A stretch of DNA of 64,000 bases. Source: Aphanomyces cochlioides (taxonomy: Eukaryota > Oomycota > Saprolegniomycetes > Saprolegniales > Verrucalvaceae). The stretch covers positions 992,001 to 1,056,000 of the forward strand of contig JAHQRK010000022.1 in assembly GCA_019828595.1 (NCBI GenBank), read 5' to 3'. Of the stretch, positions 24,657 through 52,571 are shown one piece after another (the first letter of the stretch is position 1; every line of letters begins with the position of its first letter). The position numbers and the translations under genes are program-made. The notes under the pieces were generated by a model. The model was not told the DNA's origin. It worked only from the letters and a program-made list of their open reading frames with translations, and searched no databases.

Positions 24657-26326
24657 CAGGTCATATCCGGGTCAGGTCACACTTTAGGTCAAATTAGGTT
24701 TTAATATAGGTCATGACTTGGTCACGAGGTTTTTAGTATGGTCACAAGTGGTCACATGGTTTTTTTAAATTGTCATGGTTGGACATAGTGCCAGCTCATG
24801 CATGCCATTCAAGACAAAAGAACTTACAAGTGACCTTCAACAACCATTGCTCCACCCTGCCGCATGTCAAGCGTCATGCTTCGTTCGAACAATGCCCAAC
24901 AGCGAGGCTCCACCGAGTCCAGCCTGTCATCCCCTGAAGTCGCAGCTTCCAGTCCTTTCTCGAATTCACGCGACGACAGGCTGGACTCGATCGCATCATC
25001 ACAAGGCGAAGCCGACAGTGAAGGCGACAATCTGATGTAATCACAACCGCAAACGGCGCCGCTCAATTGAATCTTACTCATCCGATGAAGATGAGGCGAT
25101 GGGAGACTCCAACGAAAACCCAAACAAACCAAACAGCGGGCCAAGAGAAGGACGTACTAAGATATTCTTGGGTCAATACGAGATGACAAGAGCCAGCATT
25201 ACCCAAAGGAAGATAACTTACCGTTGCAGTTTTTATCGAAGTCAAAAGTGTCGAGCAAGACTGGAGTATTACTCATCCACGATGGACTACGACTATGAAA
25301 TCATGGTTCCACACACTTGCTTGCCGCGTCGACCTGTTGAGACTACCGAAATCGCCAGCATGTCATCGATTTCAGTCATTTCAGCAATGAAACGAGCTGT
25401 TGATAGCTTGGCAACATCAACAGCCAAGTCACCGGAGCAGATATGGGAAACATTGCATGCCTAGTTTTATAACCAAGACAACGTGGTCGTACATGGTTTA
25501 ACGAAGATACAAGTGGTGAAGCGGGTCCATCGAGCAAGATCCTCACATTTTGGGCTCAGTATTCATGGGCGAGTTGAAGTGCCTCCATTGGCTTTGGTAA
25601 AACATTCAACCTTGAAGTTCTTCCAATTCCATCACGTCTGGTCCAATATTCACAGCAAGCGAGAAGACAAGCTAGATCGACTCATTGGATGGGCACATCC
25701 TGAGCTGATTACATTATTGCGTTACGACAATATCACACTCTTTCTTGATGGCACCTTCCGTTGCACACCAAGTGGATTCACCCAGTGCATTGTATTGATG
25801 GTGTTCGATCGAGGAACAAAACTCTGTCCCAGTTTCTTATGTATTATCGACATCAAAATCCTACGATGCATCTTGGAATGCACTGCAATATGTCGGCAAC
25901 ACGAGTGGCGAGTCATTGAAGCCCAAGGATATTGTGTGCGATTTTGAGAAAACGCTTGTTAATGCAGTCTGTGACCGATTTCCTAGCGTTCAAGTCATGG
26001 GATGCTTCTTTCATTTTAAACAAGCATGCCAACGTCACATGATTAAGTACCGAATCCCATCTTTGGAGATCAAAATTGCGATGTCAAGTGGAGTGCTCGA
26101 TATGCTGACCGTCGTAGATCCAGAGAAGGTGTCGAGGCACGGCATCAGGTGGGTAAGACGAAAGATCAAAGAAATGTGCGAGCAAGATCAAATCGAATAC
26201 TCGAAGACTAAATGGCATCGATTTTGGAAATACTTCGTGAAGACATGGATCAACCTGTATCCCCCTCATTTATGGACTGTACATGGTGTACGGATGGATA
26301 CAGTGACCTGCCCCGGACATGACCTG
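24657..26326. mobile_element. Mutator-like element (MULE) A, decayed
   Basis: Ends are inverted repeats: CAGGTCATATCCGGGTCAGG at 24657 and the complement of CAGGTCATGTCCGGGGCAGG ending at 26326, about 24 bp with three differences. It encloses a broken MULE transposase. I could not find a matching target-site duplication, so the exact ends may be off or one flank altered. Confidence 0.72.
25099..26275 (+). pseudogene. MULE transposase, broken
   Basis: The N-terminal part has a FLYWCH/WRKY-like zinc-binding segment (ITYRCSFYRSQKC ... PHTC). The catalytic part has TLFLDGTFRC (first Asp), then KPKDIVCDFEKT (second Asp) and GCFFHFKQA, the C-x2-H signature of MULE transposases. Lesions: in-frame TAG at 25462-25464; a frame shift near 25828, after which the correct frame reads VPVSYVLSTSKSYDASWNAL; and a truncated C-terminus with no SWIM finger. 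Inactive. Confidence 0.85.
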
Positions 26327-46808: not shown

Positions 46809-47849
46809 GATTTGTTGTTTATACTTGATTTTTGTATATTGGGGGAGGTCCAGTCGCAAGGATGTACTTGGTTTTCGTATGAGTCGGGTTAGGGTTGCTT
46901 CCAAGCACAGAGCAGTTTTATTTCACACCTTTCAAATGTGAGACCATGGCCGATATGTTCAGTTCTCTGAAATACAGTTACTATGAAAACTTATATTTTG
47001 TATTGTGAAATTTTATATCACTACTAGTATTTTGAAGGACGTCTGTACACACACACCTGAGAGGGGAATGTCTGCTGAGATATCAAACGCCGAGCAATGC
47101 ACGAAGCAGCTAACAATCTTCTCAGTATGAGTGAAATGGGCTAAGTTACCTTTCGGGTGCCATGGGACTGGGGAAATAAGCGTGGGGGCTTGTACCAGCA
47201 CCTCGTTCGATATCAAGTTTCTGCTTTTTGTATGGATAATGTTGAGAGGTTTAGCAAACATAGCGGGGGCCACTGGCGGCCAAATGCACTCAAGGACCAA
47301 CGCTGGCGTTACTCATGACGAGTCAGGATAACGATGGAGGAAATGAAATCTTCTTGAGGGTTTAGTTCTTCCCAAAACCCATGCAAACAGATTTAAACGA
47401 TCAACCTCACTTCGCCACTACCAATCGTCAAGTAAAGTGGACTTGACACTTAAGGGCATGCCCCAACGCAGTGCTGCTGGACAATAGTTGAGCCAACAAA
47501 TGAGTCGAAACAGCGTCAACGTGGTCATCTGATGGTGAACAACTGACATATTTAATCATTTCCATATGCTTGATTGCTAGGTTAATCAAACAGCGGAAAC
47601 CAAAATAACTTTCTCGTCGCGTTAGCATTTCGAATGGCTGGTGACCTTACTCAAAACCTCATAGCGATATAGTCCCCAAAGTTCAGTCCATCGCAGTACA
47701 CTAAATGCTATACGGCTCTCTGCTTCAACTCTAGTCGCGTCATTTAGCTTCAAAGTATATAAACACGCCAATCGCAAGCAAGAGTTTATCCTCAGTTTCA
47801 ACAACTGGACTGTAACTTGTTAATAACTGCGTTTACGATATAATCTTAT
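46809..47849. other. spacer without supported gene
   Basis: Short frames at 47013-47331 and 47428-47804 show nothing recognisable. Confidence 0.4.
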
Positions 47850-48589
47850 GGGAAAATGTCAAAAGGTGTATAATGTATCAAAATATTTCCAAAATGAGCA
47901 AAATGTATGCAATATGTGTATAAACGACAATCATTCTTGTGTCATATTGAGTATTGTGAATGTGTCGTCAATTAGTGTATAATTATGTGAAAATTGGTGA
48001 CAAAATGTGAATCTGAGAAAATCCGAATATTGGGCTCCTGGACAGGAAGGACTGTTAACAAGTCAAGGCACTCCGAGACTCTCTGGAGCTCAGTTGCGAC
48101 TGAGGGACACGGCCAAAGAAATGAATGACACGATATTTGGAGATATGGATCGAGTGAGCGATGACTCGGAGGAATTGCAAGTCGGAAGAACGTACTTATC
48201 GGCCAGCGAAGGAGTGCAGGCAGTACAAGACTACGCACTGGCGGCAAGCAAGTCTGTCAAAGTAATGCAACGAAGTGGTGTGCACAGGGTGATAGCATGC
48301 ACTACCCCTGGCTGCAGTATGTTTGTTCGACTTTACCGAAGACAAGTGAACTATGAAAGAACTGACGTTTGGTATATTTCGTCGCTATGCCTTGATCATA
48401 AGAGCATCTCCACCGGTCACTGAGTTTTGACACTGAAACTGAGTTTTATTCAGTGTCAAAGTCAGGGCGGAGTTTCGAAACTCCCTGTTTGAGAAGAAAG
48501 AGCATTTTTGGTGCACTGGGTTTCAACACTGCTTTCTCTTTAATCCTATATTTAGATAATAAAATTACACGGGCACATTTTCATGGAAC

Positions 48590-49140
48590 ATGGAAGCATG
48601 GAAGGCAACGCTGACCCAACTGGTCGACGATGTCTTCGACTCATCAGACGAAGACGACCATATCGCTGCGACAATTCTCTGCTTGACAAGAACGAGGATC
48701 CAAAGATACAAGGCCCATTTAGCAGGAAGTCCTTGGGGTGGCTCTAGACCCGGTCGGAAAGCGAATTTGCCTCGACATCAAATCGAGGGACACGAAAGAA
48801 TTGTCCGTGACTACTTTGGAGACGTTTCCACGCCACCCGTGTATTCGGAGGTCATGTTTAGACGCAGATTTAGGGTGTCAAGAGAGTTATTTGAACGTAT
48901 CATGACGAATATTGTCGGTATTGATGACTACTTTGAGCAAAAGAGAGATGCTGCAGGTAGAAGAGGTACTATACTATTCGCACTATGGTGGCTTTAAATT
49001 TATTCAATAGGACTATCAACAATACAAAAGTGCACTGCTGCTATATTGAGCTCTCAAATGCAGTTCGTGATGAAAATGGACACAACAAGCTAAGAAGGGA
49101 TATCATTGAGCACCTGTGGAATAAGAGAGGTAATCAATAA
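48590..49140 (+). pseudogene. Harbinger transposase with catalytic core deleted
   Basis: N-terminal region MEAWKATLTQLVDD, PPVYSEVMFRRRFRV, LFERIMTNIVGIDDYFEQ and KRDAAGRRG aligns with the copy at 43351. After WWL the frame stops. The QKCTAA motif and a C-terminal scrap (VRDENGHNKLRRDIIEHLW) survive up to 49140, so the whole DDE core is missing by internal deletion. Confidence 0.82.
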
Positions 49141-49179
49141 ATGTAATTAACTTTATTACAAGTCACGCATCACACATCA

Positions 49180-50021
49180 TTACAGAAGCACTTCACTGCC
49201 TTTACTAGCTTTAGCTTGTGTTGCATCAGCATCGCCTTGCAATTTTGCTTGTCTCTCTTGTGCTCGGGCTTCTAATGTAGCGATAACCTCGGCTTGTTGT
49301 AATTCCACAAAGCGTTTTGCAATTGGAGTCAAATTGTCAGTGCTCATTGTAAACAATTGCATGTTGGCAACGATAGTCTGAGCGTGCGCCTTTCTTTCCA
49401 TTGCTGCTGCCATGTCTGCCGTTGCTTTGGCAAGCGATTCGTCATGATCTGGCAATTTCGCAAGTACTTTTTTTCGACGTTTGGCCGCCTTGACACCTTC
49501 GGGTCGCTCCAAGCATGATGTTCCCGATGATAGCGTAATATTTCCTTCATGGAGCTACCATCGCTCTCATCGGAGACGTCATGCTTGGTCTTTTTCACCA
49601 ATGTGTTGCTTCGGTAGGTTTCCCACTTGGGCTTGATTGAAAGGAATCTCCAACATTCCATGAACTTGAAGTGCATGTGCTTGCCGGATTTGTCCACATT
49701 GCGTTCATAGTACAGCGTCTTGGCACACTTGATAACATCGTCGATGTTTGTGCCACTGGCTCGCAGATCAGTAGCTTCAGCATAGCAGCCACAAAACTTC
49801 CCGACGTGGAGTTTTATTGTTGCAAATTTCGACTCAAGGGCACGGGCAGTTCTTTCAGGTCGACCTTTGGGGATCGACGCATTGTACACCGCTGTGATAG
49901 CCTCCCAGAACGTTGATGAGGGCTGTCCTGTTCCAGTTATCTGATCTTCAGACACTTGTACCCACGCCTTGCACAATAGCTCGTTCTCCGCGTCGGACAT
50001 CCACACAGACATTTTACTCAA
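49180..50021 (-). pseudogene. Harbinger Myb/SANT-like accessory, frame-shifted
   Basis: From the ATG-containing start near 50012 (MSVWMSDAENELLCKAW), a trihelix/Myb-like domain (TFWEAITAVYNASIP, RTARALESKFATIKLH) and KWETYRSNTLVKKTKHDVSDES. Near 49540 a 1-nt change shifts the frame. The C-terminal part continues as SSGTSCLERPEGVKAAKRRKK to a glutamine/alanine-rich coiled coil ending GSEVLL at 49180. Paralog of 44687 but diverged. Confidence 0.82.
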
Positions 50022-51256
50022 CTGACGGAATATTGTTTCAATGTATGCTATAGTTCAGTATATTTTTGAAGCATACAAATTCGAAGATATTCGAAAACTC
50101 AGTGTCGGAGGCTCCAAACTGCGGGGCCTGACTTTTAAACTCCGTGTCCGTGTCAGACTCAGTGTACCGGTGGAGCAAGACTCAGTGTCACTCTGCCCGA
50201 AAACTCAGTTTCAGTGTCAAATTCAGTGACGGGTGGAGATGCTCTAAGAACTGCATGTCAAGCGCGAAACCAACTCGTCGCCAAATAGCTTCTCTACCCA
50301 CGTTCCGTGCTGCAGTTCAAGCCGACTCGTCTATATCTGCAACCGCTCTGGTAGACCAAGTGCAGCGTCGTGATGGAATCTCACTTTCTCAGGTGAAAAG
50401 GACTGTGTATCGAGCAAAAGACAACATCTCTAGAGGCACTATCCGTCGAAGTTGGATCTGATGTTTACAACTACCTCAAGAATATTGCTCCCATTCACTG
50501 GTGTTTACATGCAAACATTGGTGTGAAATCATTGTATGGATGGCGGACAAGCAATTTTGTTGAAAGCTTGTTTGGTTCTCAATTGGTGCAGGGGATGCGA
50601 AGCCTTCCTCCCATGCAATTCCTTGACGCTGTCTGCAGTAGCATGGTCGACGCTGCATATCAACGATCTCAATCAGCAACTAAATGGATTCAGGAATCCA
50701 TTTTAGTCACACCTGCGGCGCAAAAGATGTATGACGAAGAGAGCGCGTGTATCGGTCATTATGCAGTCCAGCATGCGTCTGATGACATTGCGTACGTGTG
50801 GAATACCTCCTCAAGTACTCGTTCAATTGCACTTGTCCGATTATGGACCAATTTGGTATACCATGTCGGCACTTGATTGCCGCTTTGAACTCCATGAATG
50901 AGTTGGAGAAGATCCACTCTGCGTTTTCCGAGTGCTACCTCGTTTCATTGTACGAGGAGGCCTTTCGCAATAAGTCGGTTTTTGTTCCTTTGGAAACTGA
51001 AGTTGACAGAGAGGTAAGCAACGAGGTTGACGTTTGCCTTCCCCCTGTTGTATCACGACAGCCGGGTCGCCCAAAGATGAAACGTATACGAAGTAAAGGT
51101 GAAGTTGGCGACATGTCCTCGTACAGATGCTCGAAGTGTAGCAAGCCAGGTCACAATAAACGTCGATGCAATTTGACGTAAGCCGCGCGTTCAAATCTCA
51201 TAGATGCATTGATTGTTTATTATTGCAGCATATATAATAATCTAGATACAATGAAA

Positions 51257-52406
51257 TCATGCATTTCGGCATTTGCTTGAACCACACTGGCATTCAAACC
51301 ATAAATCTTTGCCATAATCGACTGACAACTCCTCGCCTGGTAAAACGATTTTCGTCGTAGCAACCACAACAGTAATATGGCGCCGATTCTGGACTTCAAA
51401 GAAACCACAGTTTGCATCACACCAGTGATTGATAAATCGAGTGATGTTGCCATACTTTTCAGCATCAATGGAGAGCTTCTTCCCTCTGGTAGATCTTGCC
51501 CCTAAAGCAATCACATATGAGTTTTGCTGGGTCTTATCGCGGGTGAAATCGTGCGTCGTGAGAATGCCAGAGTACTCGCCAACCACAGTGCCATGTTCGA
51601 TGAGGTTTTTAGTCGTCAACGTATAACCAAGGCGGCCCATTTTCAAGACAAGTCCATCCAAGTTCTTCAATCGATTTCCACAGTCTTGGAGAACACAATT
51701 GTTGTTTGCACAAAACATGCCAGAGCGAGCATTTGGGCAATGATCGATTCTGCATCTCCCTTCACACTTACACCAATCAACTTCTCCAATGTCATGAATA
51801 CAAATGCCACACGGGTTCAATGTGTGGTTGATATTCACAACACTTGCAGGCCATTCAGCATCAATCAAAGGACCATCGCTGACTTCGTCGTTTGGCTGAG
51901 CGGTTGTACTGTCGAGGGGGGAAATCGACTGATTGAGTGACAGCAGTGCAATCAAAGTCTTCAGGGAAAACATCATGCGTAATCGTGTTGCCTTCAAAGT
52001 TGCTGGCATACAAGCTTTCGATTTGCTCAGTGCAGTGCTCAATATCTTTCGGCTGCCGAGGTCCAGGTTCCTTGATAGTTAGTTTTTGTGCAAGAATTTC
52101 GACAAAGTTAGAAAGCATCTTCGACATCATGACAGAGACATGATACGCACGCTTGGAGTCTCTAACCATGACTCGAAGCTTGTATTTCTTCTTTCTCGAT
52201 TTTGGCTTTGAACAGCCGGTCTTTCCTGTGCGTTGCTTCTTAAAGCTATACTCCTTTTCTCCATATGTGGGAATATCTGTGAAGTCAATTCCTTTTCGAT
52301 GTTCCCTCAGTCGCAATTCGAATGCATCGGTCGTATCCTTACCTGCATGAGATAGTGCATCCTTGGATAGACCTTGTGTATTGTCGGATTTTGTTTCAAA
52401 GTTCAT
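51257..52406 (-). pseudogene. SET-domain protein gene inside MULE, one homopolymer frame shift
   Basis: The N-terminal frame (52406 to about 51910) encodes a basic region (TGCSKPKSRKKKYKLRVMV). After a six-C run at about 51916-51921 the frame changes by one base. The rest reads: a Cys-rich pre-SET/AWS-like block (NPCGICIHDIGEVDWCKCEG ...), the SET core with GEYSGIL, NITRFINHWCDANC and GEELSVDYG, and a post-SET zinc motif CQCGSSKC. SET domains transfer methyl from S-adenosylmethionine to protein lysines, usually histones. One base fewer in the C-run gives a single protein of about 382 residues. The common NHSC motif is NHWC here. It may be functional if the run is a sequencing error. Confidence 0.87.
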
Positions 52407-52571
52407 CTGTCAGGTGGAAAGGAAATTTCGAAATGTGTAAAATGTGTCACAATGTGTTTAATGAGTGATTGTCATTATTTTCTCCAAAATTTTGTAACCC
52501 TAACCATTTTTATCACTTTTTTGAAATATTTTCAAATTTTATACACCTTTTGACATTTTCCCTAATCTTAT

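What the first reader, a model, noticed from the sequence alone, without database searches (positions are those of the whole stretch)
47850..52562. A Mutator-like transposon that carries a SET-domain gene
Seen: a 9-bp target duplication TAATCTTAT, 24-bp perfect inverted ends, a MULE transposase remnant, and between its stop and the right end a minus-strand gene with pre-SET, SET and post-SET motifs. Known: MULEs can capture or carry extra genes (for example ULP1-like proteases in plants), and SET proteins methylate histones. Inference: the SET protein is transposon cargo, perhaps modifying chromatin at the element or its target to escape silencing. I do not know of a described MULE-SET element in oomycetes, but I cannot search.
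Basis: partly seen in the sequence, partly recalled or inferred. Interest (0 to 1): 0.88.

Follow-up and report, generated by a model that had tools for sequence, protein, structure and literature searches.

The report
Jumping gene carrying a histone-methylase-like gene
In a genome that appears to be that of a sugar-beet root-rot water mould, a family of jumping genes carries beside its transposase a gene for a SET-domain protein that selection has kept about as strictly as the transposase, and that protein would likely let the element change the chromatin around it and escape silencing; SET-carrying elements of this kind were already known from a related genus.

Summary
Window 47850-52562 is a Mutator-like element with 24-bp perfect inverted ends, a 9-bp target duplication, transposase remains and an opposite-strand SET gene. 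Transposase and SET distances correlate (16 copies, r 0.86, 0 of 5000 permutations). Between subfamilies synonymous sites are saturated, while pN/pS is 0.26-0.43 for SET and 0.22-0.32 for transposase. The window copy is dead: transposase core missing, a Harbinger-like insertion, SET frame broken.
The kind is known: SET-bearing MULEs of Phytophthora are in print. Added here: a family in Aphanomyces with inverted ends and target duplications, a second MULE lineage beside SET genes in the same genome, and a changed SAM-binding motif (second Gly replaced in 19 of 19 copies), which leaves open whether the protein still methylates. The anti-silencing role is inference.

The parts
47841..47849 (.). 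left target-site duplication TAATCTTAT
52563..52571 (.). right target-site duplication TAATCTTAT
47850..47873 (+). left 24-bp terminal inverted repeat (imperfect to 47903)
52539..52562 (-). right 24-bp terminal inverted repeat (imperfect from 52509)
48007..48401 (+). 5' part of the transposase remnant (DBD_Tnp_Mut below cut-off), cut by the nested insertion; the open frame runs on into the insertion to 48423
48402..50244 (.). nested PIF/Harbinger-like element, TSD TAA at 48399-48401 and 50245-50247; absent from the copy C5:1547748-1551338
48590..48997 (+). ORF of the nested element, taken by eye for a piece of a Harbinger-type transposase; no Pfam match
49180..49512 (-). NAM-associated ORF of the nested element (28.6 bits, cut-off 27.7)
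49344..50021 (-). overlapping ORF, probably the upstream part of the same nested gene (NAM-associated 23 bits, below cut-off)
50246..51181 (+). rest of the transposase remnant: SWIM zinc finger and a C-terminal knuckle-like cysteine motif; residues 189-364 of the 621-aa relative are missing
51257..52406 (-). SET gene, convergent with the transposase, split by a frameshift into ORFs 51861-52406 and 51257-52042
51311..51628 (-). SET domain
51680..51772 (-). seven-cysteine AWS-like segment before SET
51269..51292 (-). post-SET C-x-C-x4-C
52140..52277 (-). conserved N-terminal basic motif (DIPTY...SRKK...RDSKRAY), its basic half shared with P0003, P0010 and P0012

Best explanation
The 4.7-kb unit is a dead copy of a Mutator-like transposon family in which a SET-domain gene travels with the transposase between the same inverted ends, and the SET protein is predicted to methylate a histone lysine on the element's own chromatin and so would likely keep the transposase gene from being silenced. 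Shown: copies at many sites with the same ends and target duplications; SET and transposase diverging together; purifying selection on SET of about the strength seen on the transposase. Inferred: the usual convergent layout lets each terminal repeat drive one gene (as recalled for maize mudrA/mudrB); the protein binds chromatin through its basic N-terminus; its AWS-like/SET/post-SET unit acts like H3K36 or H3K9 methyltransferases (ASH1L, NSD, Set2, GLP/G9a); it acts on the element that encodes it. Not shown: enzymatic activity, target residue, effect on silencing.
Against: The SAM-binding G-x-G has lost its second Gly in 19 of 19 copies (Thr 18, Ala 1) and its first in 10 of 19; MLL5 and relatives, which lack this and two further signatures, are described as inactive or likely so (PMC5094779 passages). 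No expression, chromatin or activity data. Genes are convergent in 15 of 17 loci with both; in E12 and E45c they are not. pS is saturated, so selection is judged by a bound, on 5 of 19 SET and 6 transposase frames chosen for being open. One element (E9) has only 6/9 and one (E89a) 5/9 matching flanks. The same data fit self-repression.
Confidence: 0.45

Rival explanations
1. SET pseudoenzyme: the protein no longer methylates, but works for the element by binding chromatin or partners, as a decoy or blocker of the host's silencing methyltransferases.
For: Second Gly of G-x-G replaced in 19 of 19 copies, with states GYT, NYT and DYT (twice DHT, once DYA) that follow the subfamilies, while the frames tested are under purifying selection. 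MLL5 and relatives lack this motif among others and are described as inactive or likely so (PMC5094779 passages). Relatives P0003 and P0010 keep GYG and GFG; P0002 has GYS.
Against: The other two signatures named in PMC5094779, NH and the catalytic Tyr, are kept in 16 of 19 copies each, as in a working enzyme.
Confidence: 0.27
2. Self-regulation: the SET protein deposits a repressive, H3K9-like mark on the element and keeps its copy number tolerable to the host.
For: Best PDB sequence match is the H3K9 enzyme EHMT2/G9a at 4e-16; GLP ties with H3K36 enzymes by fold. Copy number is low: 19 SET places found.
Against: Fold ranks cannot separate K9 from K36; the benefit to the element is less direct than for anti-silencing (inference).
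Confidence: 0.15
3. Passive cargo: a host SET gene caught by chance, as in Pack-MULEs, without function for the element.
For: MULEs are known to take up host genes (PMC6446971 introduction passage).
Against: Purifying selection between deeply diverged subfamilies, co-divergence with the transposase, oomycete relatives with the same basic N-terminus.
Confidence: 0.05
4. The SET protein is an accessory for integration or DNA handling (mudrB-like) through a non-histone substrate, for example methylating the transposase.
For: Convergent two-gene layout like mudrA/mudrB (layout recalled; a PMC6446971 passage says mudrB is apparently required for integration). Conserved basic N-terminus.
Against: No similarity to mudrB was tested; the SET unit is of the histone-methylase type.
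Confidence: 0.08

Closest known systems
MULE-Phytophthora_1 (group 16 of the MULE phylogeny in PMC6446971; oomycete MuDR families with SET, Repbase Reports 2014 as cited in PMC12730594)
   Same: Oomycete Mutator-like elements with a second gene encoding SET ('SET for 14 members').
   Different: The table gives TIR 'None, except one with 71 bp', TSD not indicated, SWIM only in MuDR-5; family A here has 22-33-bp perfect ends in 6 of 8 copies measured, 9-bp TSDs and SWIM, in Aphanomyces. Repbase sequences are not held here, so common descent is untested.
HarbingerS (SET-encoding Harbinger elements, PMC12730594 passages)
   Same: DNA transposon carrying SET.
   Different: Different transposase superfamily; no SET domain was found in the ORFs scanned of the nested Harbinger-like element.
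Arabidopsis Hiun/Vandal MULEs with the anti-silencing gene vanC
   Same: MULE with an accessory gene against silencing (passages in PMC6446971 and PMC12730594): the role proposed here.
   Different: Those passages do not call VANC a SET protein; homology was not tested.
TET/JBP-carrying fungal DNA transposons (PMC12730594, passages)
   Same: Epigenetic enzyme carried by several transposon lineages.
   Different: A DNA-methylcytosine dioxygenase in fungi, not SET.
SETMAR (recalled; PDB 3bo5)
   Same: SET unit together with a transposase.
   Different: A fused primate host gene (recalled), not a mobile two-gene family.

Membership tests
Mutator-like (MULE) superfamily | 9-11 bp target-site duplication | tested here: met
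   9/9 in 7 and 8/9 in 2 of 11 pairs; 6/9 and 5/9 in the other two; window 9/9
Mutator-like (MULE) superfamily | terminal inverted repeats (not universal in the group) | tested here: met
   24 bp perfect in the window; 22-33 bp perfect in 6 of 8 copies measured, E67 32 of 33, E11 24 of 27
Mutator-like (MULE) superfamily | MULE catalytic (DDE) domain in the window copy | tested here: not met
   that region is missing in the window transposase; PF10551 not found there
Mutator-like (MULE) superfamily | MULE catalytic domain in the family | tested here: inconclusive
   PF10551 not found in open frames of E89b and E5b; homologues P0007 and P0008 (55 and 51% identical) match at 25.8 bits, cut-off 27.6; the sister at C9:1466322 is over the cut-off
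Mutator-like (MULE) superfamily | SWIM zinc finger (usual, not universal) | tested here: met
   over cut-off in the window (32) and E89b (31.9), below it in E5b (17.6)
Mutator-like (MULE) superfamily | Mutator DNA-binding domain (usual, not universal) | tested here: inconclusive
   DBD_Tnp_Mut 16.9 bits in the window, 22.1 in E5b, cut-off 25; not in E89b
MULE-Phytophthora_1 | SET as second gene (14 members) | tested here: met
   description
MULE-Phytophthora_1 | transposase inside group 16 | not testable with these tools
   Repbase sequences and the paper's supplements are not held
Catalytic SET lysine methyltransferase | SET domain fold and Pfam match | tested here: met
Catalytic SET lysine methyltransferase | N-H motif and catalytic tyrosine | tested here: met
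   NH in 16 of 19 (E89a reads NL, E9 out of frame there, E89c gap); Tyr of V-[DNK]-Y-G in 16 of 19 (E11, E45c, E89c gaps); window NHWC
Catalytic SET lysine methyltransferase | X-G-X-G SAM-binding motif | tested here: not met
   second Gly absent in 19 of 19 copies
Catalytic SET lysine methyltransferase | methyltransferase activity | not testable with these tools
   needs a bench assay
AWS/SET2-ASH1-NSD class | AWS domain | tested here: inconclusive
   seven AWS-like cysteines complete in 12 of 19 copies but no Pfam AWS match; K9 and K36 enzymes tie by fold
PIF/Harbinger (nested element) | 3-bp target duplication and inverted ends | tested here: met
   TAA; 27-nt ends at 93%
PIF/Harbinger (nested element) | Harbinger transposase | tested here: inconclusive
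   fragment 48590-48997 has no Pfam match

The most novel reading that the evidence does not exclude
A transposon family has turned a captured histone methyltransferase into its own dedicated chromatin protein: the SET unit is kept by selection about as strictly as the transposase while its SAM-binding motif has been rebuilt, so it works as an altered or catalytically silent SET protein that disarms host silencing; and in the same genome a second, non-homologous MULE lineage recruited different SET genes in the opposite layout, making SET recruitment a repeated strategy of oomycete transposons.
Probability: 0.27. Interest if true: 0.75.

Novelty: new member of a known kind. Interest (0 to 1): 0.5.

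Why it matters
Transposons with their own chromatin proteins are a direct handle on how mobile DNA meets silencing. Here the SET gene sits between defined inverted ends in many insertions, with subfamilies deep enough to measure selection; this indicates that the SET gene counts for the element itself, and the relatives with and without the SAM motif make it testable whether catalysis is needed. It also places SET-carrying MULEs in Aphanomyces as well as in Phytophthora.

Tried and rejected
Module swap in C20: its transposase piece is only 72% identical to the window's while SET is 95%; DNA comparison gives 95% over 2.2 kb that spans the end of the transposase and SET, so the low figure is a frame effect. 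Rejected.

Independent origin of family A and family B SETs: suggested by the trees, but one common clade is not rejected (AU p 0.145). Left open. SETs of the two family B branches as one clade: p 0.027, group named after seeing the tree; family A with the C19 branch: p 0.054.

Inverted ends and target duplication for family B: none found; the homologous block of the C89 and C17 copies shows no clear ends. So family B is MULE plus SET in recurrent neighbourhood, not a proven single mobile unit.

Not a test.

Viral contigs: 19 stretches matched a pattern, none encodes a relative. Empty site for the window insertion: the left flank is unique in the assembly; the right flank was not searched.

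First structure model (7 sequences) had pLDDT 49 and was dropped. K9 against K36 class could not be decided by fold.

Protein searches: (transposase) scored 7994 and (SET profile) 7998 best-sharing candidates, so absences there mean little.

Literature searches: seen as listings. None listed an Aphanomyces SET transposon (one paper, on pea germplasm); most subscription papers and Repbase Reports are not held.
Full report
What is there. Window 47850-52562 (genome place C15:1039850-1044562) is bounded by 24-bp perfect inverted ends and a 9-bp duplication TAATCTTAT. Inside are a plus-strand transposase remnant with a below-cut-off Mutator DNA-binding domain and a SWIM finger, and a minus-strand SET gene; 75 bases lie between the two stop codons. 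The genome is Aphanomyces cochlioides by inference: three hits named so lie on contigs of exactly the lengths of C5, C89 and C15 (P0001; P0011 and P0013; lengths).

The window copy is dead. Its transposase lacks residues 189-364 of a 621-aa open relative, which by coordinates is where sister transposases carry the MULE domain. A 1843-bp Harbinger-like element, 48402-50244 with a TAA duplication, interrupts the gene; the related copy at C5:1547748-1551338 has the uninterrupted site. The SET gene is split by a frameshift and NHSC reads NHWC.

It is a family. A protein search finds the SET gene at places 50-95% identical, well above the next SETs at about 30%. Laid against one open copy there are 19 places, 17 of which also hold transposase sequence; E89a (two ends, SET, no transposase) and the fragment E89c do not. 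Conversely 15 of 15 loci with a transposase piece of 62% identity or more have SET, and 0 of 7 sister loci at 26-33% have a SET hit within the roughly 3 kb in hand (all these searches give lower bounds). The SET nearest to a sister (C9) belongs to the family A element E9, 8.3 kb away. Genes are convergent in 15 of the 17; in E12 and E45c both lie on one strand, which looks rearranged or nested.

Independent insertions. For 11 elements both ends were in hand: 7 have 9/9 identical flanks, 2 have 8/9, one 6/9, one 5/9; 110 mismatched flank pairs never exceed 7/9. For two of these (E22, 12 kb, and E89b, 8.2 kb) the stretch between the ends was read only in part. Eight other places lack one or both ends in the DNA held and were not counted. 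Short pieces of about 210-490 bases between two such ends also exist; two of about 212 bp share their flanks and so may be one event copied.

One unit through time. Transposase and SET distances over 16 of the 19 copies correlate at 0.86, 0 of 5000 permutations (near-copies contribute; E1, E89a and E89c had too little transposase). The SET tree (14 of 19 copies) and the transposase tree (16 of 17) give the same four subfamilies. Family A transposases form one clade (100/99) apart from the seven SET-less sisters and from homologues P0007-P0009, whose SET status is unknown. Between subfamilies pS is 0.70-0.79, saturated, while pN/pS is 0.26-0.43 for SET and 0.22-0.32 for transposase; in the three near-copy pairs it is 1.03, 1.16 and 0.65, from few differences, as for decaying copies (5 SET and 6 transposase frames chosen for being open). 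So the SET gene has been kept by selection acting through the element, about as strictly as the transposase.

What the SET protein is. It has a conserved basic N-terminal segment, seven cysteines in AWS-like spacing, SET and post-SET. Above cut-off Pfam gives SET only. The nearest solved sequence is EHMT2/G9a at 4e-16, then EHMT1, MLL types, NSD3 and SETD2. A model with mean pLDDT 82 ranks ASH1L, NSD2, Set2 and GLP within one Z unit, so H3K36 and H3K9 classes cannot be told apart. NH and the catalytic tyrosine are kept in 16 of 19 copies each, but the second glycine of the G-x-G SAM motif is Thr in 18 and Ala in 1 of 19, and the first is Gly in 9, Asn in 3, Asp in 7, following the subfamilies; relatives P0003 and P0010 keep GYG and GFG, P0002 has GYS. 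MLL5 and its relatives lack this and the other two signatures and are described as inactive or likely so (PMC5094779, passages read).

Relatives. The SET protein has relatives in Phytophthora nicotianae (P0003, P0012), P. capsici (P0002, a JGI identifier Phyca11 read as that species), an unnamed contig (P0010) and a fragment in A. euteiches (P0014). P0002, P0003, P0010 and 12 family A rows form one clade at 95/94 in a tree of 44 rows, for which two family A rows and three other genomic rows, and P0004-P0006, were left out. Whether these relatives lie in transposons could not be seen.

A second SET-MULE association. Pfam MULE (80 hits) and SET (96 hits) lie within 5 kb for 12 SET hits where a uniform spread gives 0.92; family A's own transposases are not among the MULE hits. 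Nine pairs at 2.0-3.3 kb are divergent, a tenth divergent hit belongs to an already paired MULE locus, and two pairs are on one strand. Of the nine, seven have one type of SET, while those of C19:68924 and C12:1490922 group elsewhere. Two family B transposases (725 and 773 aa, 57% identical to each other) have no blastp similarity to family A's. The B SETs fall outside A in the trees, but a common clade with A is not rejected (p 0.145); the SETs of the two B branches do not group (p 0.027, group named afterwards). No inverted ends were found for B.

Known or new. PMC6446971 (passages) lists group 16 MULE-Phytophthora_1 with 'SET for 14 members', and PMC12730594 (passages) says SET genes are incorporated by HarbingerS and MuDR families from Phytophthora, citing Repbase Reports 2014, which I have not seen. 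So the kind is known. The searches named under Tried and rejected listed no report in Aphanomyces, and the passages seen do not mention selection on the SET gene or an altered SAM motif; the library lacks most subscription papers.

Mechanism. I commit to a transposon-encoded chromatin modifier that counters silencing of its own element, at 0.45; the pseudoenzyme, the self-repression and the accessory readings stay open. Shown are mobility, linkage, co-divergence and selection; methylation, target and effect are inferred.

Noticed in passing
48402-50244: Nested Harbinger-like element with a TAA duplication, a NAM-associated gene and a transposase-like ORF fragment inside the MULE transposase gene.
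   Followed up: yes
25820-26023: Another MULE transposase domain (PF10551, 1.0e-5, 226-aa open frame) in the same window.
   Followed up: no
L068, L069, L070, L071; C15:653733, C21:779047, C19:250520, C20:781051, C12:1490922: Second MULE lineage with divergent SET genes (family B and neighbours); no inverted ends found in the C89/C17 pair examined.
   Followed up: partly
L076, L079, L081, L087 (C5:828784, C7:1549668, C6:962707, C18:784423); L077, L078 (C89:330882, C2:2237064): Other near-identical multi-copy SET genes, some with stops, with no PF10551 hit within 20 kb: possibly further transposon-borne SETs.
   Followed up: no
C19:838237/839958 and C78:2357745/2356914: SET and MULE domains on the same strand within 1.5 kb, perhaps a third arrangement.
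   Followed up: no
C89:681089-683688 (L017): Stretch with both ends and SET but no transposase found: perhaps a SET-only, non-autonomous derivative.
   Followed up: partly
C22:690554-702564: 12-kb family A element with a perfect 9-bp duplication, probably enlarged by an insertion that was not read.
   Followed up: no
C15 (P0013, AC1031_010177): Annotated 212-aa protein on the window's contig with the N-terminal part of the SET cargo but no SET domain.
   Followed up: no
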